64,000 nt of DNA from Timema cristinae. Lineage: Eukaryota; Arthropoda; Insecta; Phasmatodea; Timematidae. The notes under the pieces are model-generated. The model was given only the letters and a program-made list of their open reading frames with translations, was not told the origin of the DNA and searched no databases. How positions within the stretch are numbered: the first letter of the stretch is position 1; each line of letters begins with the position of its first letter. Location of the stretch: NCBI GenBank assembly GCA_039000515.1, contig JBCFYV010011135.1, positions 11,950,468-12,014,467 on the forward strand, in the 5' to 3' direction. The translations under genes were made by a program, and so were the position numbers. Shown in pieces: positions 20,395 to 49,360 of this stretch.

Positions 20395-21020
20395 GAGCCA
20401 GTTCTATCCAGTACAACTAGTTACGTCTATCTTGAGCAAGTTATATCCAGTCAACCTCATTACACCTTATCCCTGTATTGAGCTAGTTCTATCCAGTCAA
20501 CTCATTACACCTTATCCCTGTATTGAGCTAGTTCTATCCAGTCAACCTCATTACACCTTATCCCTGTATTGAGCTAGTTCTATCCAGTCAACCTCACTAC
20601 ACCTTATTCCTGTATTAAGCTAGTTATATCCAGTCCACTTCATTACCCTATATTGAGTAGTTATATCCAGTCCACCTCATTACCCTATATTGAGCTAGTT
20701 ATATCCAGTCCACTTCATTACCCTATAGTGAGCTAGTTATATCCAGTCCACTTCATTACCCTATATTGAGCTAGTTATATCCAGTCCACTTCATTACCCT
20801 ATATTGAGCTAGTTATATCCAGTCAACCTCACTACACCTTATCTCTATCTTGAGCTATTTATATCCAGTCCACCTCATAAAACTTTATCCTTCTCTTGAG
20901 CTTGTTATTTCCAGTCCACTTCATTACAACTTATCCCTGCCTTGAGATAGTTATATCCAGTACACCTCATTACACCTTGTCCTTATCTTGAGCTAGTTCT
21001 ATCCAGTCCATCCCATTACA
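20395..21020 (-). repeat. 46-bp minisatellite derived from LINE ORF2
   Basis: About 14 imperfect units of mostly 46 bp, with some shorter (37-38 bp) units in the middle (about 20640-20820). They contain GAGCTAGTTCTATCCAGTC and CCTCATTACACC. The complement encodes parts of NEVDWIELAQDRD, as in the array at 43.9-44.3 kb. At the right end the array joins the LINE pseudogene at 21015-21110. Units are more diverged than in the 43.9-kb array. The plus-strand frame with repeated SQPHYTLSLY-like peptide is an artefact. Confidence 0.85.
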
Positions 21021-21115
21021 CCCTAACTATTTCAGGTTTTATCTAATGTTATCCTCCTATCTGTCTCTATATCTTCCCACTGGTTTCTTCCCAAGGGGTT
21101 TACCAGGCAATATCT
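21015..21115 (-). pseudogene. LINE ORF2 C-terminal remnant
   Basis: The minus strand reads PGKPLGKKPVGRYRDR, stop, EDNIR, then LGCNGMDW. This is recognisable beside the better copy at 44.2-44.4 kb (TGKPIGKRTFGKPRRRWEDN). It is the basic tail downstream of the reverse transcriptase domain of insect non-LTR retrotransposons. Stops and substitutions show it is dead. Nothing further upstream of the ORF is recognisable, so the copy is 5'-truncated. Confidence 0.7.
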
Positions 21116-21683
21116 TAATATTTTATTATATAGGTATGTATCTATATAGATTTAATATATATTAAAATATATGTAAACAAATAAATAGTAAATAATAGTA
21201 TAATAACGAACTTAAATATTTGTTTCAATTATTTTGTTGCAGATTTTTTAACACTTTCTATAACCTTACTATTTAAAAATAGCAAAGAACTATTTAGGCC
21301 TGTCTACATTTTATTAATTTTTTTTTTTCAATAATAAAATTCATAAAATGTAAATTAATGTAGAGAATTTTAAGAAACAAAATTATTTAATACTAATTAG
21401 AACCCAAATAAACGAGTATTTTGAGCGATTTAAATGCATATGGGACAGTTCTTAATAATAATAAATCCCCCGCTCTTATAAGGAAATTCTCCAATTATTT
21501 TATATAATATTTATATAAATATCACTAGGCATTATAACATTTGTTTCTTATAAACTGTAAAATTAAATTAAATTAAAAATGTGAATGTTTCTTTTATGAC
21601 CCTGTTATTCTGATCCATCATCAAGGTATTTAAATGTATGGTCTTATCATTTCACATTTCATCAACTATAATTCTTTCAATCC

Positions 21684-21760
21684 ATGAGGGGATTTGAACC
21701 CACGACCCTTAGCTTACCTAGTTAACTAGCTACCAACTTAACTAATACGTCAGACGGCTT
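21684..21760 (-). repeat. tRNA-like sequence (SINE head or tRNA pseudogene)
   Basis: The complement holds TTAGTTAAGTTGGTAGCTAG and GGGTTCAAATCCCCTCATGG, good A- and B-box matches with tRNA-like spacing. It resembles a tRNA head but the acceptor stem does not close convincingly. Its body is not shared with families A-C. Confidence 0.45.
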
Positions 21761-22099
21761 ATACTATTAAAATCTGATTAATATTTGAATCACTGGAGCT
21801 CAAATTGTTTGAAGCCTCACTTTTGAAATAGGCAGGACATCCGATGACAGGTAGATTAGGGTTCGAATACCAGTTGTGTGTAATGAAGATTTTTTTTTTA
21901 TAAAAATTTCCCAATATTCTTCCATGTATATTTTGTACAATTTAAATAAATTCAGTCTTTTTCATCCCTAAGACTTTAGAGTTTAGTGCATATGAGAATA
22001 GAATAAGAGGCAATGACAAGATAATAATCGTAAATTGTAAAAATGACACCTGGGTACAGAAATAAAACCAGGGACATTTATTTTACTTAAAAAAAATCT

Positions 22100-23440
22100 G
22101 AATATAGTTTTTATAATTCTATATTTGGCCTGAAAAATTTTTTTGGATTCAAATTAGGACCATAAAACCAGACAATGGGAGAAACATTGCTTTTGTGTGA
22201 CTTTTTTAAAAACATTTTTAAACACTCTATTAACTTTTTTTTTATGGTGATGACCCTTTTTACAAACAAAGTTTATAGAAGCTTTATCCATCCAAGTTTG
22301 AAAGAGTGTTTTTGCTTCTAAGAAAAACTATAGCTTTTACTTCAAAGTATCAGACGAGCTCTTAGGAACAATCCGTCTGGAAAACTTTTTCATGTAGCTA
22401 AACGACCTCTTGTTGATGATACTTTAGTGAAGAAGTTTGTGGAGTTTTGACCACACTGTGGTACTAATATTCACTTATAGTACATTCATAGCAGCTTGGC
22501 CTTTAATGAAAGTTTAGAATGTAAGATACTTAAAACAAACTCGGATTTAACAAGCAATGTTAAAAATAGGTTCAAATTTTCATAGTAAGCGTCCAATATG
22601 ACGCAATGAAAAATTACTAGAGATACTCTCTTGTTTTGATGTGTTATTTTATTACTCTCAGATAAGCTTTTCTTGCGGATATGATGAATAATTAGTGGCA
22701 TGACCAGATTCAGTAGAGGATAATACAGGTCTCTTGGCGATGTGCACGTGACAAGTTGACTACAACAGTCCTGGTGGCATGATCTGATCTAGGAATACTC
22801 GCCTTACGAAACAAGGGGTTTTTATTTGCTATTTAAATGTATCTTAGTGCTATTTAAGGATAGATTACTTCACTATAGAATAGTCTAAGCCTAGAAAGAT
22901 CTATGCTGTATTTAAATGCAAGAATAATAATTTAATACAGAAAATCTCATTATCTTTATTTCAATTTCCATAAAAGAAAGATAAGAACGCTAGGTAGTCT
23001 AGATTTAATGTTCTCGTAAATATTTTATTTGTTTTTTAATATACTTAAATTCAAATTGCTTGGTTGATGAAAAGTGTAAATACGGTATATTTCCTTTTAA
23101 AGTTGTAGGAGTATATTAAACACAAAGAATCAGCTGTAAGACCTAGTTATATTTATTTTTCAGAAACACAAGACTCATCGAAATCTACAGAGTAATTAAT
23201 AGCAATAAATATTAACAGTTGACGGTGTTCTGAAATTTATACCTGGTTTTAGGGAGCATTTTATAAATATGCTGATATGTATTAGTAACGAATTTATATC
23301 TTTTGAAATATAATGTTTTTACTTAGCGTGTTCTTGATATGTTTTATAGTTCTTCTTTAACTTAAGTTGTGTACACTTCCAAAACATTTCCAAGGCTGAG
23401 CTTATATTAATGTGTTGCATATATATAATATTATTAATGC
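22100..23440. other. AT-rich DNA, no gene recognised
   Basis: No supported gene or named repeat. The 71-codon minus-strand frame near 22.6 kb shows no motif. Confidence 0.45.
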
Positions 23441-23446
23441 ACAGCG

Positions 23447-23765
23447 TCATCATCATCATCATCATCATCATCAATTGTTTCCAGCTTGTGCCCGGGTTAG
23501 TTTAGTAAAATAACTCCAATTTTCCCTATCCTTCCACCATTCATCCTCCTATAATTTCTTCCATTCCTCTCCTCTCACTTGCACATTTTCTGTTATCTGC
23601 TCCTCCCATCGTTTTCTTGGCCTCCGTTGTGGTCTTTTTAATACATACTTCATTTCCATCTTTTCTTTGGCATCCTCTCTTTTTGCATTCTCATTAAATG
23701 CCCATACTATCTGTCTTACTTCCTCTACCATCTCATGTACTCCAACATCCTCATTACATGTCCAT
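23447..23765 (-). pseudogene. LINE (RTE-like) ORF2 3' end with ATG-repeat tail
   Basis: On the minus strand, just left of the array, the frame includes KRPQRRPRKRWEEQI, a stop after VRGEEWKKL, then EDEWWKDRENW and LTRAQAGNN. It terminates only inside the ATG repeat (23447-23473), which supplies TGA codons. The order of a GRPRKRW-type basic motif followed by WW-DR-W is typical of the region downstream of reverse transcriptase in non-LTR retrotransposons. A very short 3' end with a microsatellite tail is typical of the RTE clade; that assignment is inferred. The reverse transcriptase core is missing and the array replaces upstream sequence. Confidence 0.78.
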
Positions 23766-25412
23766 ACCATCTCAGTCTTGCTTCCTCTACTATCTCATGT
23801 ACCCCAACATCCTCATTACATGTCCATACCATCTCAGTCTTGCTTCCTCTACTATCTCATGTACCCCAACATCCTCATTACATGTCCATACCATCTCAGT
23901 CTTGCTTCCTCTACTATCTCATGTACCCCAACATCCTCATTACATGTCCATACCATCTCAGTCTTGCTTCCTCTACTATCTCATGTACCCCAACATCCTC
24001 ATTACATGTCCATACCATCTCAGTCTTGCTTCCTCTACTATCTCATGTACTCCAACATCCTCATTACATGTCCATTACATCTCTGTCTTGCTTCCTCTAC
24101 TATCTCATGTACCCCAACATCCTCATTACATGTCCATAACATCTCAACCCTGCTTCCTCTACTATCTCATGTACCCCAACATCCTCATTACATGTCCATA
24201 CCATCTCTGTCTTGCTTCCTCTACTATCTCATGTACTCCAACATCCTCATTACATGTCCATACCATCTCAGTCTTGCTTCCTCTACTATCTCATGTACCC
24301 CAACATCCTCATTACATGTCCATACCATCTCTGTCTTGCTTCCTCTACTATCTCATGTACCCCAACATCCTCATTACATGTCCATACCATATCAGTCTTG
24401 CTTCCTCTACTATATCATGTACCCCAACATCCTCATTACATGTCCATACCATCTCTGTCTTGCTTCCTTTACTATCTCATGTACCCCAACATCCTCATTA
24501 CATGTCCATACCATCTCAGTCTTGCTTCCTCTACTATCTCATGTACCCCAACATCCTCATTACATGTCCATACCATCTCAGTCTTTCTTCCTCTACTATC
24601 TCATGTACTCCAACATCCTCATTACATGTCCATACCATCTCTGTCTTGCTTCCTCTACTATCTCATGTACCCCAACATCCTCATTACATGTCCATACCAT
24701 CTCTGTCTTGCATCCTCTACTATCTCATGTACCCCAACATCCTCATTACATGTCCATACCATCTCTGTCTTGCTTCCTCTACTATCTCATGTACCCCAAC
24801 ATCCTCATTACATGTCCATACCATCTCTGTCTTGCTTCCTCTACTATCTCATGTACCCCAACATCCTCATTACATGTCCATACCATCTCTGTCTTGCTTC
24901 CTCTACTATCTCATGTACCCCAACATCCTCATTACATGTCCATACCATCTCTGTCTTGCTTCCTCTACTATCTCATGTACCCCAACATCCTCATTACATG
25001 TCCATACCATCTCTGTCTTGCTTCCTCTACTATCTCATGTACCCCAACATCCTCATTACATGTCCATACCATCTCTGTCTTGCTTCCTCTACTATCTCAT
25101 GTACCCCAACATCCTCATTACATGTCCATACCATCTCTGTCTTGCTTCCTCTACTATCTCATGTACCCCAACATCCTCATTACATGTCCATACCATCTCA
25201 GTCTTGCTTCCTCTACAATCTCATGTACCCCAACATCCTCATTACATGTCCATACCATCTCAGTCTTGCTTCCTCTACAATCTCATGTACCCCAACATCC
25301 TCATTACATGTCCATACCATCTCTGTCTTGCTTCCTCTACTATCTCATGTACCCCAACATCCTCATTACATGTCCATACCATCTCTGTCTTCCTTCCTCT
25401 ACTATCTCATAT
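23731..25412 (-). repeat. 62-bp minisatellite, 27 units, from LINE ORF2
   Basis: The core ACATGTCCAT recurs from 23756 to 25368 at exactly 62-bp intervals, 27 times, with no net insertion or deletion over 1.6 kb. Units contain CTTGCTTCCTCTACTATCTC and ACCCCAACATCCTCATTAC. The main variant is CATCTCAGTC or CATCTCTGTC: the left third is mostly CAGTC, the centre and right mostly CTGTC. On the minus strand each unit encodes RLRWYGHVMRM followed by two stops, matching the LINE motif that belongs just upstream of the RPRKRW block at the array's left. The plus-strand unit has no stop in any frame, giving spurious frames of up to 599 codons. Confidence 0.95.
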
Positions 25413-25429
25413 ACCATTCTTTCCTGGAT

Positions 25430-25858
25430 AACGTACAGTGTCAAATTAAATCGAAAAATACCGTGATTTAGAATGAAACACAGTGTATAAAGGCTTATTT
25501 AAATTGATTGTATTTTATTGATAGAAGTGCTTAAACTATTTCCGCTACTATTTAAAGTCTTTGAATATATTTGTATTAAATGTTACCTTAAAAAAAATTA
25601 AACTGTATCTTTTGAAACATGAAATTAACTTAATTTAAGTGATGCTTATAATAGTAATTCAAATCTGAATCTAATTTGATTTTGATTTTATCCCCGTTAA
25701 AAGCAAAAGCAAAAATTTAATATTTCCCTTTTATTTTCAATCAATATCAAATGTAACCGTTGTATTTGCGCTAAAACCAAAGAAAGCTCTTTAGTAACAA
25801 ACAAGCATGGCTACAAAAAGGAATTGCCAACATGAACAGAAGATATATCAGTTTGCTA
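25430..25858. other. AT-rich DNA, no gene recognised
   Basis: Upstream LINE coding sequence would be expected here in an intact element but none is recognisable. Confidence 0.5.
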
Positions 25859-25859
25859 T

Positions 25860-26147
25860 TTATTATTATTAGCACCACGTCTTACTACCCGTTCGGGTTA
25901 TACGCACTTACGCTAATGTGTAATGATAGGGTGATTATGAGATAAAATGAAGGACCTACATTTTGTGGGATCCGAACCACGGTGGAGGCCTTGCATTCCC
26001 CACATTTACAAGTTGTGATTAATACATGTCTTGTCAGAGGTGAAGGAAGGGTTTGTCAATCAGATAAATCTGTGCCTGGACCGAGGATTGAACCCCGAAC
26101 CCCAGCACAGAGTCAGACATCCTACCCCTAGACCATCAGGTCACCTA
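25860..26147 (-). repeat. SINE family B, near full-length
   Basis: The complement runs from GGTGACCTGATGGTCTAGGG through the B-box-like GGGGTTCAATCC and the shared tail CCCGAACGGGTAGTAAGACG to a short TAA run at 25860. A few substitutions only. Confidence 0.85.
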
Positions 26148-26559
26148 GCTTTCTATATAAACTGGCTTCCAGGCTATAAATCAACAGGCCCTGTGTTTGA
26201 ACCCCATTGCTTCAAAAATTTATCTGTGAAGCAGTGGATCTGAAATGGTGGCAAAATAAACCCCGTGAGGGGTTCTCGAATAAAGAAGTAGCAGCTCCTA
26301 TTTAGAAAACTAATATTAACGGTCAAAGGGTTCACTGCGTTGACACCAGAACACCCTTTATCCGCCAATTTTGGAATTATTATCGGCAACGACGATGGCT
26401 GCTTGGTTGTTATAGTTCACTTATGGGCTAACACCATAATGTTTTGTTTCATGTAAGATGGCGCTTAGTTATCTAGAGCCTATCCTCACACTCTCTCTGG
26501 CTGATACATCACAAGTGGAGGGTTATCTATACTCAGAAATGACGTTTACAAAGTTAAAT

Positions 26560-26583
26560 ATAATAATAATAATAATAATAATA

Positions 26584-26615
<32 letters not shown>
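26560..26615. repeat. (AAT)n microsatellite, SINE tail expansion
   Basis: Two AAT blocks separated by a slipped unit, at the 3' end of the minus-strand SINE A at 26617. Confidence 0.9.
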
Positions 26616-26616
26616 G

Positions 26617-26815
26617 TAATACTTAGCACCTGTTCGGGTTACACTCTTAAATACTGATTATGCTAATGGGTTAGGAGTTTGGGAAGAGTGAATATAGAGA
26701 AAGTGAACCCTCATTTACGTGGAGGTAAAGTGGAAAACAATTTAGGAAAAACCACCCCAGTTCACTCAATCGAGATTCGAACCTCGATCTCCCCGTCTTC
26801 GGTAGTCTAGCTCAA
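26617..26815 (-). repeat. SINE family A, 5' part of head missing
   Basis: The complement has GAGGTTCGAATCTCGATTGA (B box), the body with AAACCACCCC in complement, and the tail ending in the AAT repeat. Similarity stops within the tRNA-like head near CTCAACATG. Confidence 0.75.
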
Positions 26816-27179
26816 CATGAATTAAAAGTTAAAGTTAATTAAACTTTATTATTCATTATGTATTGATTATGAAGCAATCATTGAAAATAATGTATTTTAA
26901 CATCTTATGTACTATTTAGTATTGTCTTTTAACTGTCATTTTTTTATTTCATACCAAAATATAATAATTATATTTATCTATTGCACCCTACTTATAATTA
27001 GTTTTATACATATTTGTATTAACTTATATTTATCAATCTATTTTCACATTTCACGCAATGGTTTAGATTTTTCTAAAAATAGCGGCTGTACAGAAATATA
27101 AAATCAGCGTCACTTGAAGGAATTTGATTACGCTATTGTTAACGTCGCCCAGTACATAGCAGTTATAATACGAATATAG

Positions 27180-27457
27180 GAGACCTGGTGGTCTAGGAGT
27201 AAGGTGTCGGACTTCTGTGCTGGGGGTCCGAGGTTCAATCCTCGGTCCCGGCATAGATTTATCTGATTGCCAAACCCTTCCTTCACCTCTGACAAGACGT
27301 GTATTAATCACAACTTGTGAATGTGAGGAATGCCAGGCCTCCACCGTGGTTCGGATCCCACGTTAAACTGTAGGTCCTCCATTTCATCTCTCAATCACAC
27401 TAACATTACACATTAGCGTAAGTGCGTGTAAGCCGACCGGGTAGTAAGACGCGGTGC

Positions 27458-27497
<40 letters not shown>
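27180..27497 (+). repeat. SINE family B with TAA tail
   Basis: A full B element: GACCTGGTGGTCTAGGAGTA, B box GAGGTTCAATCCTCG, body, and tail GCCGACCGGGTAGTAAGACG, then about 12 TAA units (27461-27497). The tail palindrome is altered from CCCGAACGGG to GCCGACCGGG. The 93-codon minus-strand frame over it is not a gene. Confidence 0.87.
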
Positions 27498-27499
<2 letters not shown>

Positions 27500-27894
27500 T
27501 GAAGAGAGAGACACAAGCATTTTAGTCTGGTAATGACGATAACTGGACATTGGTATGTATTCTAAAGGGTTATTTATCATTTTAAGCTCCAAAATGTGAC
27601 CTAATTTTTATCAACTTAGATTGTATCACATAATCGCTTTGTAAATGTAATGTATACAGCACTCATTTCTTAATTTTCATTATTATCGTTTCAATATTCA
27701 ATCCTTTCATTGGTACTAGAATAGTATTCATTGTGGTTTAACCAGGTTTTGTTTGGGTTTATTTTTTGAAAACATAAAAATGATGCTAGCACGTCGAAAC
27801 TAGAAGTTTACAAACTGCAATTTCCTCAGACTTATAACACAGGAGAAATAAAATAATTAATCATCAAATTTCAATTCAATTATATTCAAATTTA

Positions 27895-28080
27895 ACATAC
27901 ATGGTAGTCAACGGTAAGGTGTCAGACCTATGTGTTAAGGGTCAAAGGTTCAAATCCCGCTCTCGGCACAGATTTATCTGATTAATAAATCTTTCATTTA
28001 CCTCTAGCAAAGTGTGTGCCCGTAAAACTGTAGGTACCCTCAGTTTTCCACCATCATCATTGTCATGTATCATCCTATCA
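27895..28080 (+). repeat. SINE family B, diverged
   Basis: GGTAAGGTGTCAGACC, B box AAAGGTTCAAATCCCGC and GGCACAGATTTATCTGATTA follow the B order, then CACCTCTG-like and AACTGTAGG-like blocks appear in shortened form. It lacks the usual tail, so it is an old or truncated copy. Confidence 0.6.
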
Positions 28081-28099
28081 TATGGGGATTTTTTTACGC

Positions 28100-29050
28100 T
28101 GACTAATATTACTTCGTTTCTAAAATTTAACCCGAGTCATAATTCCTACTGTTTGAATTTCCTCAATTTATTTTACTTTTACTTTTATTAATTAACTAAT
28201 ATAGTATTAGCTCTTAGTAACTTACTAAAGACTAATTTATAATTCACCTTAATGGTGTCCCCACCTCAGAAATTAATTCCTCCATATGTCAAGGGAGCAG
28301 AGGTAAGAGAAGGTCGAATGATCTAGAGCATTAGCCCACTCCATGTTCAAATTTACTAGTGATAACATGTCTTTCACAATTACAATTTCTTTAATTTGAC
28401 TTGTCCTCATTTGATACTTGTTTTCCAGTGCAATTTTATTGTGGTTCTTAATACCATTAATAATTCAAATATTCGTTTAAAATTATATATACAAAATATA
28501 ACGTCAATATAAGAGTTTTTAACACCTTAAAATATCCTTCCCATGAAATACATACAAAATCAAATTAATCAGAATAATTTAATAAAGTTTGGTTTTTAAT
28601 ATGTATTAATAAGAATTATTAAACAAAGGTGCCTTAGTATTTTCCATTTATGATTGTAATTTTTACCACCCCTACTGTATAAGATTGTGTCTTTCAGATT
28701 GGTACTAATGTTCTGTATTGAAACTCTATTTGACGATGAGCAGATTTTTTTTGTCTTTTTGTTGATTTCTCTGTGAAGAAGAAAAATATAAAGTTTAAAT
28801 TATTGTGTATTCTCTATTATCCTTTTTGAACTGTAGATTTACCGAGTAGGTAACCACTACATTACATTTAGCGACCATGCCAGGATGATAGAGATGTTAA
28901 ATAAGTCGTGCACAACTATACAGACGCGAATTTTAATAAGTACCATTTCCGAGTCTGCTACACAGAATCCTGAAATGGCGAGAGTATAAGGCAATCTCCA
29001 TTTGTTGGGACAAAGAGTGGAAACTTTGAGTGAGCTTGTTAAACATATGT
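28100..29050. other. AT-rich DNA, no gene recognised
   Basis: Nothing recognised. The 70-codon minus-strand frame at 28.9 kb has no motif. Confidence 0.45.
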
Positions 29051-29059
29051 GGGACGTAT

Positions 29060-30385
29060 TGTACAACACGTAAAGAAGAGGATGGTTTGGCTTACCGCTT
29101 CTTCCCCAGTTGACTCATCACGACAAGGCTCCACGCCACAACAACATTGCGGAACGACTCATTTCAGACTGACCTGAGGGATCATAGTTCGCTACTCACC
29201 TCTAATTGTGCCTCGTCCAAGAAAATAATAGACAGTCGATATGCGCAGGTTGGGTGCACACCGACAGCTGTGATTGGAAGATAACGGAACTATTGTCCGG
29301 CGCGCGTTTGAATTATGCCTAGACTGTGTGAGAATGTTCCAGAACAGTGATACCCCCTACCTCTCTTCCCATCCTTGCTTCCCACGGTTTGAGAACACAT
29401 GACCCCAAGCGTGTATATATAATGGCAGAACTCTGTAGTGCCAGTAAATATTGCACTACGATAACTAAGTGAGGCACTTTGGTCTTGGATGGATTTAGCT
29501 TTTATTATTTTTAAATTCAGTTTGGCATTTAATCTTTCAAAATTACCGTTTGGGATGTTATATTATAAATCTAATCTTTATTTATACCGGGTCTCCTGAA
29601 TTTCGCTTAAAGACAATGGCTAAACTTAATACTGTTGCACGGTTGGACCCAAAACATTTGTATGATAGGGAAACTCTTTTATCCGCTTCACGAATGGGTT
29701 TACGTTTTAGAGCACCGCAATTTTTGGTCCTGTGTTGCATTGGGCTGTATTATATTGTAATTTTCTCAAATCTTATATTTTAAGATTATGCCTCGTGTTA
29801 TTAATGTGAAGTTATTTGTTATTGTTAAACATTGGAGATTTATTCTTTGTTTGTTAAATCAGGGGCCACGAGTCGACGTGCTTAATCTTTTAACTCTAGT
29901 TGAAATGTTTAACGTTAGTTTTCATAACTTTAACGAATGTTCCTATTGTGTTGTATATTTCTATTACGTCCATTTATGGCTGTTAAGATATTCTTTTATC
30001 TAGAACAATTTATCTATTACTTTGATAAATTTAGAGTCACCGATAGCGACTTGCTAATATCCTTTTGATATCACCATAGTCTAGGGCTTACTATCGCCAT
30101 CCTTCATTATTATTTTTATCTCTACCTGATTTTTGCGAAGGTCAATAAAACAGTAATTGTTTTAATAGTTTGTTTGGCCATTTATGAACTTGGGGAGGCG
30201 TCCCACATTTTTATTTTGTTATTCTAACTTTTCGGCCATTGTGTATGGATACAGCGCCTAGCGCTGGGCATGTCTCACTCTCTTGTAGAGCCTTATTGTC
30301 ATTTTGTTGAATAAAAATAAAACTCCCTTGTAACCAACCTGTCTGTTATTTATGGGTATAAGAATACATAATTAGGGGGGGTTAT
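29060..30385 (+). mobile_element. Probable LTR, related to the 13.9-kb LTR
   Basis: It starts TGTACAACACGTAAAGAAG, loosely like TGTAACGATGTTACAAGAAC. It has a TATA block GTATATATAATGGC at about 29415, then AAGTGAGGCAC where the confirmed LTR has AAGGTAAGGGCAC. Near the end AAACTCCCTTGTAACC and CTGTTATTTA resemble CTCTCTTGTGACTCC and CTGTTGTTTA. The order of these blocks matches but no target duplication could be identified, so the end is approximate. Frames inside it (77 and 71 codons near 29.6-30.0 kb) are not recognisable proteins. Confidence 0.45.
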
Positions 30386-30894
30386 AGTGTTATCGTTATC
30401 AGAATGCAGCGCGTAAGAATTAAATTCAGAAATTTCTGGTGTAAATAAGTAAATAGAGAAATATCACAAAATTCAGGTTAATATTGAACACCCTATAAAT
30501 AAAATCACGTCTGCATGAATACAAACTCAGCCCAAGGTTATTATTTACCAGGGGATAATTTTATGGCTTTCCTAATAGACTAAGGTAGCTCCAAATTATT
30601 GTTACATTCATAATTGCTTTTAAAAATCATTTCTGATTGAATAAATATCTAAATCACTTGTTAAAAATAATTCCGAGATCTGCGTCTTACTACCCCTTTG
30701 GACCGTTGGTGAAAAATTACCACACCACACAAACATTTAAAACTAAAAAACTTGCTGAACCATGCTTGAAGCTAGGCCGCTTATTATCTCTGGCTAATGT
30801 TGATATAATTTTTACTTCGAGTATTTAACGAGAACTTTATGAACATACTGATTATATCAGCACATGAATTCTAAACTAACTTAAATCTATAGCA

Positions 30895-40164: not shown

Positions 40165-40456
40165 ATTATTATTAATAGCACCACATCTTACTACCCATTT
40201 GGTTACACGCACTTACGTTAATTTGTAATGGTAGGGTGATTGTGAGATGAAATGGAGGACCTACAGTTTAACGTGGAATCCGAACCATGGTGGAGGCCTG
40301 GCATTCCACACATTCACAAGTTGTGATTAATACACGTTTTGTCAGAGGTTAAGGAAGGGTTTGGTAATCATAAAAATCTTTGCTGGGGCCGAGGTTTGAA
40401 GCCCGGACCCCCAGCACAGAAGCCTGACACATACCCCTTGACTATGAGGTCACCTT
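40165..40456 (-). repeat. SINE family B, near full-length
   Basis: The complement reads GGTGACCTCATAGTCAAGGG, the B-box region GGGCTTCAAACCTCGG, CACAACTTGTGAATGTG, GGTTCGGATTCCACG and the shared tail with a short TAATAATAA end. Confidence 0.82.
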
Positions 40457-40920
40457 GCTATGATATTCTTTTCATGTAATATTGTTAACGTAAAGTAATT
40501 ATCGTATCAGGTTAATATTTTGTATAACTAAATATTTATATGAGCTGTGTACAGTGAAATATTTATTATACTATTAATAACATAAATATATCATTGAACT
40601 ATTAATATACATTAATATTAGTAATAAATTAATATTAAAAATAATATTAAGATTATAATTATTTCATTTTGTACATTTCATATTAATTTCTGGCCATTAT
40701 AAATTTTAGCCCCATACATTAATTACTTTACCTTGACACTGGTACGGTAGAAGCATAAAATAATAAGTTTGACCCCTTATGACTGGTGAACTGTGATGAT
40801 TTGAAACCATTAATTCATTATTAATAAATATACACTTGTTCAAATTATGCAATACACAGCTTAAAGTACAATGGTTTGTGCCTTTTTTTAGAATTACTTG
40901 TGTAAATTTTTTTAGCAATT

Positions 40921-41080
40921 TGTCTTACTACCCATTCGGTCTATACGCCAAAGTACTAATTACACTGATTGTTTAGTGATTAGGATGGTTCAATTGAGAG
41001 GAAGTGCACCTGAATTTGCGTGGAATGAGAGTGGAACACCAATTAGAAAAACCACCCTTAGTGCTGCCACCGAACGAGAA
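40921..41080 (-). repeat. SINE family A, 3' part
   Basis: GTCTTACTACCCATTCGG begins the complement of the shared tail. The body (AGAGGAAGTGCACC; AAAACCACCC) follows, but the tRNA-like head is lost at about GCTGCCACCGAACG. Confidence 0.68.
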
Positions 41081-41389
41081 CTTGTGTACTATATCTAAGC
41101 TAGTGTTCCCTTACACTCCTCACCTTCATCACTTTTATATATAATTAAGAAAGAGGATAAATAAAACCACGAAATTTCTTAAATCAAGGTAAAGAGGAAA
41201 GCTTGCTGCTAGTTCTCAAAAATCTTTATATCTTCTGTTGTGAGCCTTTCCAAAAAATACTGAATTTATTGAAGGAAAGCTAATTATAGCACTCTTGTTC
41301 ATCAAGCCTAGTCACATTACTCCGTAAATATGCTTAAATATTTTATTTAAATTAGCTAGTGTCCCATTTCTCACATTTTTAATTTCCCT

Positions 41390-42112
41390 CGACACCTTTG
41401 AGAGAAAGTTTTGTGATCAATAAAAAATTATAACGAAAGATTTTGATAAATGTCGACGTTTCATGACCCCCTGAAACCAAAAATGTGTTTTTCTCATTGC
41501 CGTCTGTCTGTCTGTACCTCTGGCTAGAGCTGGAACTATTTCACCAATATTTGTGATAAAGCCTGGTATCTAGTGTGTTCATAGCATCCCCCCCGAGGAA
41601 GTTTTAAAATTAGATTTCTAACCCTTATTTTAAGGGTAGATTACTGAAAGACAAAAAGAAAAAAATCCATTTACTAGGAATTCGATCTAACGATTTTGAT
41701 TAATTGCTATATCTAGACACTATTTTTTTTATTATTATAAACAAGATGGCAGCTCTCATTTTCTCAAAATATCGCAATAAAGTTTTAGTTCTATTAAAGA
41801 ACAGATCTTTTATTTGAAATATATTTATATAAAATCAATGGTTTCTGATCTATAATCAAGTATATCTATTAATGAATTTGATTTCTATGCTATTTGGTAG
41901 AGAAAGATGTTTCTATTTTCTCAATTTTTCTGTAACAGTGTCCCTAGTTCCTAATACGAAGTATGTAACAGTGTATATTATTTCATGTATGATCTTTTAT
42001 GTAATATTTCTACAACAATCTATACACCTATTATTTCGCTTCACAAATATTACGAATTATTATAAAAGGTCTATTTTAAGATAAAAGCGAGAGAAAGTCT
42101 GTGCTTAGTGTT
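41390..42112 (+). repeat. Family D repeat, near full-length
   Basis: It starts CTCGACACCTTTGAGAG and AAATGTCGACGTTTCATGAC, runs through TGCCGTCTGTCTGTCTGTAC, TCCCCCCCGAGGAAG and ATAAACAAGATGGCAGC, and ends AGAGAAAGTCTGTGC. It is about 720 bp with no terminal inverted repeat or protein recognised; a 70-codon frame inside is AT-rich chance sequence. Other copies are at 11.3, 12.9, 13.5 and 61.2 kb. Confidence 0.75.
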
Positions 42113-42387
42113 TTATCATTTATTTATTTTTTCTATTAATAAAACTTAGACCATAGGGCTATTAAGGTTAAAGAGCCCTGCTGGGATCTTCTAGTTTACT
42201 CATATTTTGGTGTGAATCATATTTTTAATTAACGCACCATAGAATCAACAATTATTGGTTTAAATCTGAAGGTATGCGTGGAAAAAATTTGTTTATTAAT
42301 GCAGCCCCCTTAATATAAATCCACAATATCACTTTCTGCGTCCCTCGTCTTATTTATTGTCAGGACTATTACCATAATTAAAATAAT

Positions 42388-42643
42388 AATAATAATAGCA
42401 CCACGTCTTACTACCCATTCGGGTTATACGCTTTAAGTACTAATTACGCTAATTGATTAGGAATTGGGAAGGTCGAATTAGAGGAAGTGAACCCACATTC
42501 GCGTGGAGGGAGAGTGTAAACCCATTTAGGAAAAACTACCCCCAGTTCGCCCGACCGAGATTCGAACCTCGATCTCCCCGTCCTCAGCAGTCGAGCTCTA
42601 CACGTCTAGCGCGTTAGCCAACTACGACACCAAGGCGGGTAAT
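42388..42643 (-). repeat. SINE family A, full-length
   Basis: The complement reads CCGCCTTGGTGTCGTAGTTG, the B box GAGGTTCGAATCTCGGTCGG, the body, and the shared tail CCCGAATGGGTAGTAAGACG with a short TAT/TAA end. It is the closest copy to the element at 220-478. Confidence 0.86.
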
Positions 42644-42732
42644 ATAATTAAAGTAATGAGGCAGGTAATTAAACCTATAAAATAAAATCTATCTCCATTT
42701 TCGTGTAAGAAAACGTAGCTTAAAACAATCGC

Positions 42733-42965
42733 TACCTTGGCTCAGTTAGTAGCATGTCTTTGAACTGTGGACTTACTATCAATGAATACTTAATGGCTGG
42801 GGACTGGATGTTGTGCCTGTCCTCGTCTTAAGTTATATTATAAGGCGTATGAAGCTACGACAGGCCTGTCCAGCCGGTAGTGAAAAATCTATTGCATGAA
42901 TAAAAAACTGACGCAGACCACAGACTGTAAACCGTAGTGGATGTAAAAAAATATGTGGGTGAATA
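42733..42965 (+). repeat. SINE family C, part of head deleted
   Basis: TTGGCTCAGTTAGTAGCATG begins the head, but the B box is missing or deleted. The body GTTGTGCCTGTCCTCGTCTT, CTACGACAGGCCTGTCC and the tail AAAAAACTGACGCAGACC, ACTGTAAACCG, GTGGATGTAAAAA are present. Confidence 0.72.
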
Positions 42966-43241
42966 TTTAGGAAAATATAAACCTCACCACACCAAAATAG
43001 GGTTATAATCCCATCCCCTGCAAACAACAGAAGACTGTGTTTGTGTTCCAACAGGTGCCGGGTGTGAACAAAATGAATCATTCAACCATCACAATATTAT
43101 CCCTTTACTAAATTACCGACCTCTTCTAGCATTGATGTATCAGGTAGAACCCGTTATTAATTCACGTACCGGAGAGGAATACAGCTAGAGAACACTGGAA
43201 GCATTATGGTTCCAAACACAGCGGCCTTAACATAGACCCTC

Positions 43242-43275
43242 ATATATATATATATATATATATAATATATATACA
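43242..43275. repeat. (TA)n microsatellite
   Basis: Alternating TA with ATAATATA slips and neighbouring CATATACATACATA. Confidence 0.88.
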
Positions 43276-43615
43276 TATACATACATAGTTTCCACACAAC
43301 ATCAAACATCGCTCTGAGGGATTCCGACAATCCACGAACAACCTGTTGAAAAGAAAAGTAATCTGTGGAATGATTTGAGAACATCGGTGTACATACTGTG
43401 AGCTAAAAAACTCGTAAATATTGGAACAATTTGATATCAAGTATACCTTTAAATAGTCCAATGTTCTTAAGAGAGCTAGATAAGCTACTAAATCTTTCAC
43501 CAATGCCAAGTTATGTTATCTGCTATTACCACATTATTTAGTTAATTACTCTATTGCATAGGGATTCGAAAGTTCATTGCTTCGTTTACAAAAGTACGCC
43601 AGCTATTCCTATCTA

Positions 43616-43852
43616 CAGTAGCCCCATGGCTTCTTTGGTGCTGACTGACAGCTCACAGCAGACTTCTGACAGTCAACATTTAGGTATATACCTAAATTTT
43701 TACTGTCAAAAGTGACAGCTGCTAGACACATGTTTTTGAAGATCATCTGGTTCAGCGTAGGGATACGTAGTTTGGTCTGGTAACTTTTTAAAGCTATCAG
43801 AAGTCAGCTGTGAGCTGTCAGTCAGCACCAAAGAAGCCATGGGGCTACTGTA
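43616..43852 (+). mobile_element. MITE copy 2, TA target duplication
   Basis: Inverted termini CAGTAGCCCCATGGCTTCTT ... AAGAAGCCATGGGGCTACTG are essentially perfect, with TA on both sides. It is 237 bp without coding capacity. It inserted into a LINE ORF2 remnant beside the 46-bp array, separating it from the end of the ORF. Internal GGTATATACCTAAAT and AGCGTAGGGATACGTAGTTT match the other copies. Confidence 0.93.
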
Positions 43853-43856
43853 GATC

Positions 43857-44300
43857 TAGTTCTATCCAGTCCACCTCATTACACCACATCCCTATCTGGA
43901 TCTAGTACTATCCAGTCCACCTCATTACACCCTAACCTTATCTTGAGCTAGTTTTATACACTCCACCTCATTACACCCTAACCTTATCTTTAGCTAGTTC
44001 TATCCAGTCCACCTCATTACACCCTAACCTTATCTTGAGCTAGTTCTATACAGTCCACCTCATTACACCCTAACCTTATCTTAAGCTAGTTCTATACAGT
44101 CCACCTCATTACACCCTAACCTTATCTTAAGCTAGTTCTATCCAGTCCACCTCATTACACCTATCCCTATCTTGAGCTAGTACTATCCAGTCCACCTCAT
44201 TACACCCTAACCTTTTCTTAAGCTAGTTCTATCCAGTCCACCTCATTACACCTATCCCTATCTTGAGCTAGTTCTATCCAGTCCACCTCATTACAGCCTA
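43857..44300 (-). repeat. 46-bp minisatellite from LINE ORF2 (second locus)
   Basis: About ten units of 45 or 46 bp contain GAGCTAGTTCTATCCAGTCC, ACCTCATTACACC and CTATCTT. The complement encodes CNEVDWIELAQDRDR-type peptide. The 45-bp units (CACCTATCCC) keep frame and sit next to the coding flank; the 46-bp units (CACCCTAACC) break it. The same unit forms the array at 20.4 kb. Confidence 0.92.
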
Positions 44301-44449
44301 TCTCCTTCAGACCCATTTTAATATTATCCTCCCATCTTCGTCTAGGTTTTCCAAATGTTCTCTTCCCAATTGGTTTGCCAGTCAGTGTTCTGAAAATGGT
44401 TCTATAATCTCTCATTCACGTTGAATGTCCTGCCCACCTAATATACGAG

Positions 44450-45380
44450 ACTTGATTATCCTAACAATAGATATTATCATTACCTATAAAATAAAACTAA
44501 TAAGATTGTAAAATATTATCAATTTTAGCCAAATACAAAGTTTTTATTTTCTTAAGGTCTTTCCTATAAAATTTGTACCCCCTCTATTCTATCGCTCCTA
44601 CCAACTGATCAAGATATACCATTTATAGATAAAAATTTATTAGGAATGTGGTGTGTAATAATTTATAGAAAACGTAACCGCATTTGCTGTAGGGAGAGAG
44701 GGGGACCCTTAATTAAAATACACCCTTCAATACATTTAGGATAGGATTCGTAAAATTACCTTCACATTATAATAGGAACTATGCTCAAGTTTTTCCACAA
44801 CTGTATAGCTTACGTGATCATAAGTTAATTTGTATTCAATGGTTGGTATTTTTGAACCACACGGAGGTTTGTGTATGTGATCTGTGCATTTGGGGGAGAG
44901 AGAGGATGTCCGGTCCTTGAAAAGTGGGAAGAAACCATTCACACACAAATGTGAGAAATAGGAGCTAATAAAATGGCCAACTACGTGGATAATTTGTTTA
45001 CGTATATTGTTTAGAGATTTACTTATTTACTTATTTATTATTTATTAACTGAGACCTATTTATTTTTAACATACTAATCGTTTGGCATCAAAGCTGTCAT
45101 TAATGAATGAAGACGAATACTGGTCTTAGTGCTAAATATGAATCATCTTCATAACTAATTTTGGTATTAAATTATCAATTCGATTTACTTGCTTGGAAAT
45201 AATTTTGAATTATTTAAATAAATATTACTATATTATTAAGGAGAATGACTAATTATTTAAGATGAAGTATATTTAGCATCAAACCTAGTCATAGTCGTAT
45301 TCTAGTTCATTTATTAATGGGTGCGTACCTGCTAAGCGATAAACAATCAGAAAAGGAATATATCTTACATCATTAATTAT
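44450..45380. other. AT-rich DNA, no gene recognised
   Basis: No supported gene. The 70-codon minus-strand frame near 44.8 kb shows no motif. Confidence 0.45.
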
Positions 45381-45568
45381 AATCATTTATAAGCTAGTAG
45401 AACATCTGTTTAAATAATCTGAGCTCCCTCAAATTCAAACTGACCATTAATTTGTATCTCTAATTCAGTAAGAAAATCATTTATAAGCTAGTAGAACATC
45501 TGTTTAAAAAATCTGAGCTCCCTCAAATTCAAACTGACCATTAATTTGTATCTCTAATTCAGTAAGAA
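45381..45568. repeat. 94-bp tandem duplication
   Basis: AATCATTTATAAGCTAGTAG begins at 45381 and again at 45475. The two 94-bp copies differ by about one base (TTTAAATAATC or TTTAAAAAATC), so the duplication is recent. Confidence 0.95.
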
Positions 45569-47140
45569 AATTAATTCTATTATAGGACAATCACTTTATT
45601 ATATCTTTCCCTAGGCATACGCCTTGGAAACAATTCGATTAACTAATTTCCTATATCGATGGATTGTGGAGATATAATCAAAATTAGTGATATAATCTCA
45701 CATAAAGTATCATCTAAATTATATTTCCAGGGTAAATGAAATGTGGCATTTTGTTTATTTGTTTGTTTTTATGTATTGTTAAACAGTGTATACATATGAA
45801 TTTTATTCAAAATCATTTGAAACGATTTTGAGAATATTGATTAGTTTTATTTCCATCCATAAGTAAACTACCCCTAATTTTAGAGTTGGATTTATAATAC
45901 CGAATATAACACTAGGCAACATTATATAAAACATAAATACAAAAAAATTGTAATCTTGGAAACTGATAAGAAATAAAAGTTATATAAATAAAATTGTAAT
46001 TTATGTAATCATTTTAATTCGTCGACGTGTTATTTGCACTTCAAAAGCAAGGAGAAACTTGCATATAAATTCCAATTTCAAATCCGAAAATCTCAAGAGC
46101 ATTTGTGGATTGTGATAAAGTGTCCTGTTTTCATAGTTTTGTTTGTTATTTAGTATTCATGTCAGTAAATAAATCGTGTTTATTTGACAAATAAAAATTA
46201 CACAGAAATCATTCAAAATATTTATTTAACTAAACGTTTAATTTACATACACATGTATTTAGACGACTACTCTAAAGGTAGCTTGAAAATGAATGAATGT
46301 GGAAGGACACAGTGTCAGAAAAAAAGCAGTTTTAGTGAAAATTACATATCTTCTCAGGAAGATAGCTGCCTTCATTTTTGTATTTGGTTCATCGGCTGAA
46401 TTTATATAGCTGTGAGAAATATTCTTTGATATATTTATAGAGAAATTTATCAGGAAACGCAATAATCGTACTCCCTGATATTTCGATTGTGATAATTTGT
46501 CCCTCCAAGAAGTATTGTACAAAGCACACTGATCTAACAAGACAAAAAGCGGTAATACTTTTATTAATGTAAGCCTTCTCATCAGCTTCAGAAAATAATC
46601 CAAGGTATTCCTGACATGAATAAGGAAGAAAAATGGTGCAGCAGGAAAAGTTAATGTTGAACGCAGGACAAACAAAAGCCTTAGAATGTTAATGAATGAT
46701 GCAAACGTCATCGGAAGACAAACATCTAAGATTTGGTGAACCAACTATAACTCTGAGCCATGCAACAAATGCACTCATTCAATTGTTGCAGAATAGGCTA
46801 TAATGATTTAATATCTGGGAGAAAAGTTTTACTGTTGCGGGACGATTTCAGGTAATGTATAACAACTGTTCTGACGCATGTTGATAAGACAGCAATTGTC
46901 GAGACACGTTTTAAATACTTTCAGCTATGGAAGGAGTTATAAATTATCAAGCTAAAACATAATGTGCGGAAAATCAACAATAGCTTCCGTTATTGGCTAA
47001 TGCAAGTGAGTGATGGAAAACTGAAAATATATATTTTGAAATATCATATAGGGTCCAGGGTAAATTTGGCAAATGACTAGGTAATTAACATAGCATTTGA
47101 AAATATCTTGATATTTCAAATGGCCATTATGTGCCCAAGA
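45569..47140. other. AT-rich DNA around the unassigned frame
   Basis: Apart from the 161-codon frame, no repeat or gene is recognised. Confidence 0.4.
46259..46744 (-). other. Unassigned 161-codon open frame, probably not a gene
   Basis: This is the longest frame outside tandem arrays. It starts MVHQILDVCLPMTFASFINI and is rich in hydrophobic residues and Phe, with no domain, signal or repeat I recognise. In DNA this AT-rich a stop-free run of this length is uncommon but possible by chance across 64 kb. I see no matching splice sites, promoter or polyadenylation context. It could be a decayed exon or a fragment of an unrecognised element; I do not claim a product. Confidence 0.15.
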
Positions 47141-47144
47141 CATA

Positions 47145-49360
47145 ACTCATCACCATCAACTCTTTCCAGCCTGTGACCGGGTCAGTTAATTCCAGTTAGT
47201 CAGTTCCCCCAATCTTTCCCGGATAACTTAATTCCTTATCTGGTTTCTCCTCATTACAGTGAACATGCTCCTCACCAACTTCATTCCTTATCTGGTTTCT
47301 CCTCATTACAGTGAACATGCTCCTCACCAACTTCATTCCTTATCTTGTTTCTCCTAATTACAGCGAACATTCTCCTCACCAACTTCATTCCTTATCTTGT
47401 TTCTCCTAATTACAGTGAACATGCTCCTCACCAACTTCATTCCTTATCTTGTTTCTTCCCATGACAGCGAACATGCTCCTCACCAACTTCATTCCTTATC
47501 TTGTTTCTCCCCATGACAGCGAACATGCTCCTCACAAACTTCATTCCTTATCTTGTTTCTCCTCATTACAGCGAACATTCTCCTCACCAACTTCATTCCT
47601 TATCTTGTTTCTCCTAATTACAGTGAACATGCTCCTCACCAACTTCATTCCTTATCTGGTTTCTCCCCATTACAGTGAACATGCTCATCACCAACTTAAT
47701 TCCTTATCTTGTTTCTCCCCATGACAGTGAACATGCTTCTCACCAACTTCATTCCTTATCTTGTTTCTCCTCATTACAGCGAACATGCTCCTCACCAACT
47801 TCATTCCTTATCTTGTTTCTCCTCATTACAGCGAACATGCTCCTCACCAACTTCATTCCTTATCTTTTTTCTCCTCATTACAGCGAACATGCTCCTCACC
47901 AACTTCATTCCTTATCTTGTTTCTCCTCATTACAGCGAACATGCTCCTCACCAACTTCATTCCTTATCTTGTTTCTCCCCATGACAGTGAACATGCTTCT
48001 CACCAACTTCATTCCTTATCTTGTTTCTCCTCATTAGAGCGAACATGCTCCTCACCAACTTCATTCCCTATCTTGTTTCTCCCCATGACAGCGAACATGC
48101 TCCTCACCAACTTCATTCCTTATCTTGTTTCTCCCCATGACAGCGAACATGCTCCTCACAAACTTCATTCCTTATCTTGTTTCTCCTCATTACAGCGAAC
48201 ATGCTCCTCACCAACTCCATTCCATATCTTGTTTCTCCCCATGACAGTGAACATGCTTCTCACCAACTTCATTCCTTATCTTGTTTCTCCTCATTACAGC
48301 GAACATTCTCCTCACCAACTTCATTCCTTATATTGTTTCTCCTAATTACAGTGAACATGCTCCTCACCAACTTCATTCCATATCTTTTTTCTCCCCATGA
48401 GAGCGAACATGCTTCTCACCAACTTCATTCCTTATCTTGTTTCTCCCCATGACAGCGAACATGCTCCTCACCAACTTCATTCCTTATCTTGTTTCTCCTC
48501 ATTACAGCGAACATGCTTCTCACCAACTTCATTCCTTATCTTTTTTCTCCTCATTACAGCGAACATGCTCCTCACCAACTTCATTCCTTATCTTGTTTCT
48601 CCCCATGACAGTGAACATGCTTCTCACCAACTTCATTCCTTATCTTGTTTCTCCTCATTAGAGCGAACATGCTCCTCACCAACTTCATTCCTTATCTTGT
48701 TTCTCCCCATGACAGCGAACATGCTCCTCACAAACTTCATTCCTTATCTTGTTTCTCCTCATTAGAGCGAACATGCTCCTCACCAACTTCATTCCTTATC
48801 TTGTTTCTCCTCATTAGAGCGAACATGCTCCTCACCAACTTCATTCCTTATCTTGTTTCTCCCCATGACAGCGAACATGCTCCTCACAAACTTCATTCCT
48901 TATCTTGTTTCTCCTCATTAGAGCGAACATGCTCCTCACCAACTTCATTCCTTATCTTGTTTCTCCCCATGACAGCGAACATGCTCCTCACAAACTTCAT
49001 TCCTTATCTTGTTTCTCCTCATTACAGCGAACATGCTTCTCACCAACTTCATTCCTTATCTTTTTTCTCCTCATTACAGCGAACATGCTCCTCACCAACT
49101 TCATTCCTTATCTTGTTTCTCCCCATGACAGTGAACATGCTTCTCACCAACTTCATTCCTTATCTTGTTTCTCCTCATTACAGCGAACATGCTCCTCACC
49201 AACTTCATTCCTTATCTTGTTTCTCCCCATGACAGCAAGCATGCTCCCCACAAACTTCATTCCCATTGCCTCTACTTTCCTAGTATCTCTTACATTCATT
49301 GTCACTTTTTCTGCTGCATATTTAACAATGGGTACAGAGTACGCCCTGTACAATAATTAT
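47145..49360 (-). pseudogene. LINE ORF2 C-terminus carrying a 52-bp array
   Basis: At the right end the minus strand reads VEAMGMKFVGSMLAVMGRNK followed by IRNE. It corresponds to the KIEALEMKFLRSML..RDKIRNE-type stretch that follows reverse transcriptase in insect LINEs. The array interrupts it. Beyond the array, at 47145-47215, the complement (TTAACTGACCCGGTCACAGG, CTGGAAAGAGTTGATGG) matches the LINE 3' tail seen at 23.45-23.5 and 59.4 kb. So array, coding flank and tail are collinear with one LINE copy in minus orientation, 5'-truncated and dead. Confidence 0.75.
47227..49254 (-). repeat. 52-bp minisatellite, 39 units, from LINE ORF2
   Basis: The phase is exact: CTTAATTCC at 47227 and CTTCATTCC at 49255 are 2028 bp apart, 39 times 52, so there is no net indel. 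Units contain CTTCATTCCTTATCTTGTTT, CTCCTCATTACAGCGAACAT and GCTCCTCACCAA. Variants include CCCCATGACAG for CCTCATTACAG, TTAGAG for TTACAG, TTCTCACC for CTCCTCACC, and CACAAAC for CACCAAC. They recur in ordered blocks, for example alternating TTAGAG and CCATGACAG...CACAAAC units at 48.64-48.99 kb, a higher-order 104-bp repeat. The complement encodes RRNKIRNE-like peptide. Plus-strand frames of up to 195 codons are artefacts. Confidence 0.95.

What the first reader, a model, noticed from the sequence alone, without database searches (positions are those of the whole stretch)
20395..49360. Four minisatellites born from the same short region of LINE ORF2
Arrays at 20.4-21.0 (46 bp), 23.7-25.4 (62 bp), 43.9-44.3 (45/46 bp) and 47.2-49.25 kb (52 bp) all encode, on the minus strand, pieces of the non-LTR retrotransposon tail downstream of reverse transcriptase: NEVDWIELAQDRD, RLRWYGHVMRM and RRNKIRNE. 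Each is flanked by collinear LINE coding sequence. The motifs come from different points within roughly the last 200 codons, and all four sit in the same orientation. Chance capture of one LINE by one array is unremarkable; four in 64 kb suggests this region is prone to tandem amplification, perhaps by template slippage during target-primed reverse transcription or by replication slippage afterwards. Seen: motifs, spacing, flanks. Known: the tail motifs of insect LINEs. Inferred: the mechanism.
Basis: partly seen in the sequence, partly recalled or inferred. Interest (0 to 1): 0.82.

Follow-up and report, generated by a model that had tools for sequence, protein, structure and literature searches.

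The report
LINE tails carrying variable tandem repeats
Four repeat arrays in this insect DNA come from the tail ends of two jumping-gene families, and for one family the same 46-letter repeat, in anything from 1 to at least 34 copies, sits at the same spot in many copies across the genome, so these mobile elements may scatter ready-made minisatellites.

Summary
In detail: all four arrays lie inside 5'-truncated LINE tails, on the minus strand. But they are not four births from one region. They come from three sites in two LINE families: A (46 bp, twice) and B (62 and 52 bp). C-terminal clustering is expected, because no reverse-transcriptase domain was found in the parts of the window scanned.

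A search of the window's own 1.29-Gb genome (probably a Timema stick insect) changed the picture. The 46-bp array sits at the same codons in 32 of 40 LINE-A copies found with an array-containing query, and in 6 of 25 distinct copies found with an array-blind query. Unit number runs from 1 to at least 34. The first junction is 46 bp in 31 of 34 distinct arrayed copies and never 40, although the longest direct repeat lies at 40. In three of four two-unit copies the units are about as diverged as the insertion is old. One locus appears with 17 and with 8 units.

Best explanation (0.6): LINE A carries the repeat as a VNTR, as SVA/LAVA elements do, and it is remodelled in DNA after insertion. Recurrent local slippage (0.28) remains possible. 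LINE B could not be searched genome-wide.

The parts
20427..21022 (-). 46-bp array in LINE A (about 14 units, five of them a 37-38-bp variant)
   Evidence: TRF; units listed
21023..21119 (-). LINE-A coding flank upstream of the 20.4 array (GKPLGKKPVGRYRDR.EDNIR)
   Evidence: HMM positions 63-110, iE 6.7e-17
23686..25415 (-). 62-bp array in LINE B (27.9 units; 12 distinct sequences among 27)
25416..25440 (-). short LINE-B flank upstream of the 62-bp array (GTTATCCAGGAAAGAATG)
   Evidence: aligns to the 47.2 right flank, 19/22, and to array-free copy L045
23474..23685 (-). LINE-B tail downstream of the 62-bp array (RPRKRWEEQITENVQVRGEEW...TRAQAGNN)
   Evidence: Timema cristinae relative P0121
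23447..23473 (-). (TGA)n tract at the LINE-B 3' end
   Evidence: TRF; the same end in L045 and at 59.4 kb
44301..44480 (-). LINE-A coding flank upstream of the 43.9 array
   Evidence: HMM 36-110, iE 1.2e-34
43856..44300 (-). 46-bp array in LINE A (10 units, the first and third of 45 bp)
43611..43855 (.). palindromic element inserted in the last unit; other copies at 11649-11870 and 60321-60561
43554..43610 (-). end of the LINE-A reading frame (DRNSWRTFVNEAMNFRIPM)
   Evidence: HMM 106-124, iE 6.6e-5
49264..49340 (-). LINE-B flank upstream of the 52-bp array (KYAAEKVTMNVRDTRKVEAM)
   Evidence: aligns over 145 columns to array-free copy L045
47225..49263 (-). 52-bp array in LINE B (39.2 units, 19 distinct among 39, 5-unit periodicity)
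47150..47224 (-). LINE-B 3' end after the 52-bp array, with an internal deletion
   Evidence: 35/41 to the 23.7 tail
17806..18037 (+). decayed LINE-A tail without an array
   Evidence: HMM iE 1.3e-7 for 17843-18037; 17806 from a weak tblastn match
59372..59483 (+). very short LINE-B tail with a (TTG/TGA)n end and a 9-bp candidate target-site duplication
   Evidence: the duplication was reached in 2 of 200 shuffles

Best explanation
The four arrays are minisatellites inside 5'-truncated copies of two non-LTR retrotransposons. For LINE A, one 46-bp tandem duplication (codons GCNEVDWIELAQDR of the ORF2 tail) most likely arose once and is carried by part of the family as a VNTR: it is copied with the element at retrotransposition and is then lengthened, shortened and homogenised in the DNA. 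LINE B probably behaves similarly at two other sites of its tail (62 and 52 bp). Shown: LINE identity, collinear flanks, the same site in many loci, variable unit number, two lengths at one locus. Inferred: single origin, passage through the RNA, exchange as the mode of growth, and the extension to LINE B.
For: Same site in many loci: 32 of 40 copies with an array-containing query and 6 of 25 distinct copies with an array-blind one. First junction 46 bp in 31 of 34 arrayed copies, 45 in 2, 47 in 1, never 40, although the consensus of 22 single copies has its longest direct repeat (8 bp) at lag 40 and only 6 bp at lag 46. Two-unit copies share at most one private change between units; their unit divergence over twice flank divergence is 1.36, 1.19, 0.46 and 1.09 against about 1.3 expected for duplication at insertion; some large arrays are also old (19 units 1.27, 6 units 1.29, 20 units 0.89). 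Remodelling in DNA: L007 and L008 agree at 99.8% over 400 bp but hold 17 and 8 units; repeated unit types and a 5-unit periodicity, 0 of 2000 permutations at lag 5 and 11 of 2000 for the best of lags 1-12. A second 62-bp array probably exists at another locus in Timema monikensis.
Against: Within each sample no flank variant marks arrayed copies (77 and 61 of 100 permutations do as well), and no unit variant distinguishes arrays from single copies; a VNTR-bearing source lineage might be expected to leave such marks. Many arrays are younger than their insertion by the divergence ratio (pooled 0.75, 0.58, 0.52 and 0.47 for 2-3, 4-6, 7-12 and 13 or more units), which homogenisation or later birth would both explain. 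Each unit is only 46 bp, so single ratios are noisy. The longest exactly repeated block of units in the 52-bp array, 3, is not unusual (151 of 2000). No transcript was seen, and LINE B was not sampled genome-wide.
Confidence: 0.6

Rival explanations
1. Recurrent local birth: LINE tails hold short direct repeats, and each array is born after insertion by slippage or unequal exchange between them (the Haber and Louis model).
For: The unduplicated sequence has direct repeats at the unit edges: GATAGG at lag 46 in LINE A and TGAAGTT about 51 bp apart in an array-free LINE-B copy. Array state is not linked to flank variants within samples. Array ages relative to insertion are widely spread.
Against: 31 of 34 first junctions have the 46-bp register and none the 40-bp register that has the longer repeat. 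Three of four two-unit copies are about as old as the insertion.
Confidence: 0.28
2. Template slippage during target-primed reverse transcription makes the array at the moment of insertion.
For: Some arrays are as old as their insertion.
Against: Repeated unit types and 5-unit periodicity point to later exchange in DNA, and one locus has two lengths. In LAVA elements new integrants did not differ from the source VNTR (PMC4432496, passage). The uniform 46-bp register needs a special preference of the reverse transcriptase.
Confidence: 0.07
3. Coincidence: a genome rich in minisatellites will show some in LINE tails.
For: 8 other minisatellites (25-110 bp, at least 4 copies), none from LINE A or B, lie in about 227 kb of fetched flanking DNA, some of it counted twice; three more lie in the window.
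Against: The same LINE-A site is arrayed in 6 of 25 distinct array-blind copies.
Confidence: 0.05

Closest known systems
VNTR composite retrotransposons of apes (SVA, LAVA)
   Same: Mobile by the LINE route, with an internal tandem array of variable length, remodelled at the DNA level (PMC4432496: abstract in the listing, passages).
   Different: Those are non-autonomous composites whose VNTR is not LINE coding sequence; here the array is the LINE's own ORF2 tail and the family has a reverse-transcriptase domain.
TE-derived minisatellites of the human genome (Ahmed and Liang 2012)
   Same: Tandem repeats inside TE copies, with hotspots in AluS and LTR12; for LTR12 the authors suggest that the array was propagated by transposition (PMC3389668, passages, section 3.4).
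   Different: Different elements; the authors found flanking direct repeats in 300 of 7,276 TE-derived arrays. Here an insect LINE coding tail is the source.
Minisatellite birth between short direct repeats (Haber and Louis 1998, seen only as cited in PMC6947457 and PMC3389668)
   Same: Short direct repeats at the unit edges.
   Different: The LINE-A arrays do not use the longest available repeat and occur at the same site in many loci.
LINE-derived satellites (PROsat, chicken HinfI, common cetacean satellite)
   Same: LINE ORF2 or 3' end as monomer source (PMC9659126, section 6 read, table passage).
   Different: In that review they are treated as satellites; here the short arrays remain inside dispersed LINE copies.

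Membership tests
Non-LTR retrotransposon (LINE A) | reverse-transcriptase domain upstream of the tail | tested here: met
   RVT_1, E 6.6e-9, in L046, ending about 300 bp upstream of the tail; 1 of 3 copies examined, the other two gave none
Non-LTR retrotransposon (LINE A) | variable 5' truncation, short repeats at the 3' end | tested here: met
   5' reach varies from about 155 bp to more than 700 bp among 40 copies; GTAA-like ends visible in 5 of 6 single-unit copies printed
Non-LTR retrotransposon (LINE B) | reverse-transcriptase domain upstream | not tested
   the genome search with LINE B did not complete; only tails were seen
Non-LTR retrotransposon (LINE B) | target-site duplication | tested here: inconclusive
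   9-bp ATTCAATAA at 59.4 kb (2 of 200 shuffles do as well); no support at 23.7 kb (139 of 200); at 47.2 kb the best match is 7 bp, no control run
VNTR-carrying retrotransposon (SVA-like behaviour) | same array at the same site in many dispersed copies, variable length | tested here: met
   (LINE A only)
VNTR-carrying retrotransposon (SVA-like behaviour) | array transmitted through the RNA | tested here: inconclusive
   uniform register and old two-unit copies speak for it; no linked flank markers speaks against
SVA/LAVA family proper | composite of Alu-like, VNTR and SINE-R or L1 parts | not tested
   not filed as a member; hominoid-specific according to the abstract listed
Haber-Louis minisatellite | short direct repeats at the unit edges in the unduplicated sequence | tested here: inconclusive
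   6 bp for the 46-bp unit and 7 bp for the 52-bp unit, but the 46-bp arrays ignore the longer 8-bp repeat at lag 40

The most novel reading that the evidence does not exclude
An insect LINE has turned the end of its own ORF2 into a mobile VNTR. The element retrotransposes with one to tens of 46-bp coding units, so that most arrayed copies have a shifted C-terminus, and it seeds very many variable minisatellite loci. A second LINE does the same at two other sites of the homologous tail. The last codons of ORF2 would then be dispensable for mobility, and LINEs would be a main dispersal vehicle of minisatellites in this genome.
Probability: 0.4. Interest if true: 0.66.

Novelty: new variant of a known kind. 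Interest (0 to 1): 0.52.

Why it matters
A 2022 review finds no conclusive evidence that particular parts of transposable elements preferentially give rise to tandem repeats (PMC9659126, section 6). LINE A offers a natural experiment: many copies, one site, and unit numbers from 1 to at least 34, in what is probably a genus with several sequenced species (the last recalled). It would let one date array birth against insertion directly, and ask how minisatellites, and later satellites, are seeded.

Tried and rejected
Segmental duplication of 20-25 kb and 43-49 kb: the spacing between arrays is similar (3.26 and 3.37 kb), but with the arrays masked self-BLAST shows only a 66-bp LINE-A match and one 62-bp match between those stretches. 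Rejected.

Shared 10-mer TGTAATGAGG in all three units as an amplification signal: 0 of 320,899 dinucleotide shuffles and 7 of 384,369 codon shuffles reach a three-way match of 10. But if only the 46-bp unit is shuffled, 609 of 212,950 reach it (0.29%); the 52-bp array of 39 units holds only 14 exact copies and its flank reads TGTCATGGGG; the array-free LINE-B copy lacks it; the 51-, 59- and 85-bp arrays lack it. Kept as a curiosity.

Relatives in viral contigs: none. In genome contigs: two short hits, L001 and L002, not studied. Rfam: no match at gathering score. Pfam hits TetR_C_46, DUF2400 and UL2 reached their cut-offs over the arrays as whole-protein scores, but no single stretch passed, so they were set aside as repeat artefacts. 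Timema + minisatellite in the paper library: two papers, neither opened.

Not reached: a genome-wide search with LINE B, and a census of random 10-kb regions.
Full report
CHECK. TRF gives the four arrays at the stated coordinates. Read on the minus strand they encode pieces of the tail of non-LTR retrotransposons. The 43.9-kb locus is the clearest. Before the array stands GKPIGKRTFGKPRRRWEDNIKMGLKEIG, then ten units of CNEVDWIELAQDR, then a ~245-bp palindromic element with two more copies in the window, then DRNSWRTFVNEAMNFRIPM. An 81-aa peptide over this locus has 519 relatives at E<=1e-3 among 522 candidates. On an HMM of 21 aligned rows the two flanks map to 36-110 and 106-124. The 20.4-kb array is the same unit in a more decayed copy.

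TWO FAMILIES, THREE SITES. The 62-bp and 52-bp arrays belong to another LINE, B. Its only hit in the protein collection for the tail is a Timema cristinae protein (E 7.8e-6). The plus-strand reading frame of the 62-bp array hits one Timema monikensis protein, named CASC3 by its source (E 1.2e-21; only the 7,996 candidates sharing most words were scored). Its letters hold about three copies of the unit. Neither its CASC3 part nor the junction is found in the window above noise, so a second 62-bp array probably exists at another locus. The 52-bp array's right flank aligns to both flanks of the 62-bp array. An array-free LINE-B copy in fetched genomic DNA (L045) gives the native order: VKFVRSMLAVTRRN, NEVIQERMGV, LRWYGHIM, VQVRGEE, HFSKLT, then TGATGATGAT. 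LINE A and B tails are distantly alike (31.9% over 69 columns, E 1.5e-5).

WHY THE C-TERMINUS. Pfam on translations with stops read as X found no reverse transcriptase on the minus strand (1-64000 in overlapping pieces) or in the plus-strand stretches 9700-19695, 25600-43800 and 54005-64000. Plus-strand 1-9699, 19696-25599 and 43801-54004 were not scanned. The LINE-A and LINE-B matter found in this window is thus tails of roughly 100-300 bp, arrays left out. Arrays from 'the last 200 codons' are what coverage predicts, and that part of the finding is no evidence for a fragile region.

THE GENOME. After 16 'busy' answers the same search was answered: the window is contig C7570:11950468-12014467 of an assembly of 1,291,024,802 bp in 7,605 contigs. 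Only 40 of 4,321 first-look candidates were scored. Among these 40 LINE-A copies (the window's own included, and two loci present twice) 32 have two or more units and 8 have one. The query contained the repeat junction, so this sample is biased towards arrays. A second query used only upstream flank from a single-unit copy (40 of 4,013 candidates scored, 30 fetched). Besides its own copy, 6 of 29 carry arrays (6, 19, 4, 2, 15 and 12 units), 22 carry one unit, and one lacks it. Collapsing near-identical copies leaves 6 of 25. Pooled and collapsed, 60 copies: 34 arrayed, 25 with one unit, one with none. Both samples are the best matches to one query each, not a random draw, so 24% is an estimate for that neighbourhood of the family only.

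SAME SITE, SAME REGISTER. In copies with both flanks the LINE resumes near the place expected for a whole number of units: 35 of 51 lie within 4 bp of 50+46(n-1), but for arrayed copies alone 16 of 28; the rest deviate, through indels, odd-length units or wrong counts. The first junction is 46 bp in 31 of 34 arrayed copies, 45 in 2, 47 in 1. The consensus of 22 single copies has its longest direct repeat, 8 bp, at lag 40 and a 6-bp one at lag 46. Births by microhomology at each locus should have used lag 40 at least sometimes; within arrays a 40-bp lag does occur 10 times.

AGE. In two-unit copies the units share at most one private change. Unit divergence over twice flank divergence is 1.36, 1.19, 0.46 and 1.09 for the four, while duplication at insertion predicts about 1.3, the ratio of unit to flank divergence in 25 single copies (0.107 and 0.082). 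Pooled ratios fall with array size: 0.75 (2-3 units), 0.58 (4-6), 0.52 (7-12), 0.47 (13 or more). Some large arrays are old (19 units 1.27; 6 units 1.29; 20 units 0.89). Low ratios can mean later birth or homogenisation. Each unit is only 46 bp, and the first sample was chosen partly by likeness to the unit, so single values are noisy and may be low.

FRAME. 46 is not a multiple of 3. The number of extra units is a multiple of 3 in 7 of 34 arrayed copies, so most arrayed copies have a shifted end of ORF2, with no sign of selection for frame.

INSTABILITY. L007 and L008 agree at 99.8% over 400 bp upstream but hold 17 and 8 units; one lies on a 60-kb contig, so they may be two haplotypes or a recent duplicate. 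The 62-bp array has 12 distinct unit sequences among 27 and the 52-bp array 19 among 39, the latter with a 5-unit periodicity (0 of 2000 permutations at lag 5, 11 of 2000 for the best of lags 1-12), while its longest exactly repeated block of 3 units is not unusual (151 of 2000). This fits multi-unit exchange or slippage in DNA. In the ape LAVA elements new integrants showed no change in the VNTR against their source (PMC4432496, passage).

AGAINST MY READING. Within each sample no flank variant marks arrayed copies (77 and 61 of 100 permutations do as well). The combined sample has one such site (p 2.5e-4, 0 of 100 permutations), but there query and array status are confounded. No unit variant distinguishes arrays from single copies. 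A recurrent slippage site remains a serious rival.

IDENTITY OF LINE A. In L046 an RVT_1 domain (E 6.6e-9) ends about 300 bp upstream of the tail; two other copies examined showed none. 5' ends vary. The LINE clade was not determined.

BACKGROUND. In about 227 kb of fetched flanking DNA (some of it counted twice) 8 other minisatellites occur and none is LINE-A- or LINE-B-derived, so the genome is rich in minisatellites of other origin too.

HOST.

LITERATURE. Seen: passages of PMC6947457, PMC3389668 (and section 3.4), PMC9659126 (and section 6), PMC3648361, PMC11691646 and PMC4432496; the rest only as listings. TE-derived minisatellites, hotspots in AluS and LTR12, and VNTR composite elements are known. 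I saw no report of a family-wide VNTR in a LINE ORF2 tail in searches, which cover only the open-licence library.

Noticed in passing
window 3534-3942, 7770-8671, 32373-32907: Three further minisatellites (51, 85 and 59 bp) not derived from LINE A or B; the flank of the 51-bp one matches a dispersed copy at 14179-14340 (72%).
   Followed up: partly
window 43611-43855, 11649-11870, 60321-60561: A nearly palindromic ~240-bp element, three copies; one interrupts the last unit of the 43.9 array, so that array is older than this insertion.
   Followed up: partly
window 23686-25415, 43856-44300, 47225-49263, 20427-21022: All three unit types share the 10-mer TGTAATGAGG: 0 of 320,899 dinucleotide shuffles and 7 of 384,369 codon shuffles do as well, but it is not maintained in the 52-bp array.
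   Followed up: yes
window 936-1212, 4969-5249, 25872-26147, 27178-27457, 40178-40455, 51806-52041, 55157-55436 and elsewhere: A SINE-like repeat of about 280 bp that often ends in (TAA/ATA)n, several copies in 64 kb; the copy at 26.1 kb looks tRNA-like to the eye, not tested.
   Followed up: no
L046 about 3747-3992: A cytochrome b match (Pfam E 2.4e-14) just upstream of a LINE-A copy, probably a nuclear insertion of mitochondrial DNA.
   Followed up: no
protein P0001: A LINE-A relative from another source carries the whole ~60-codon tail twice in tandem, another kind of tail duplication.
   Followed up: no
L004, L007, L014, L031, L036, L074: Other long minisatellites of unrelated sequence beside LINE-A copies, for example 32 bp x19.6, 45 bp x20.7 and 58 bp x17.5.
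   Followed up: no
window 62273-62497 and 63090-63314: Inverted 225-bp arms, 98.7% alike, around a palindromic stretch 62902-63089.
   Followed up: no
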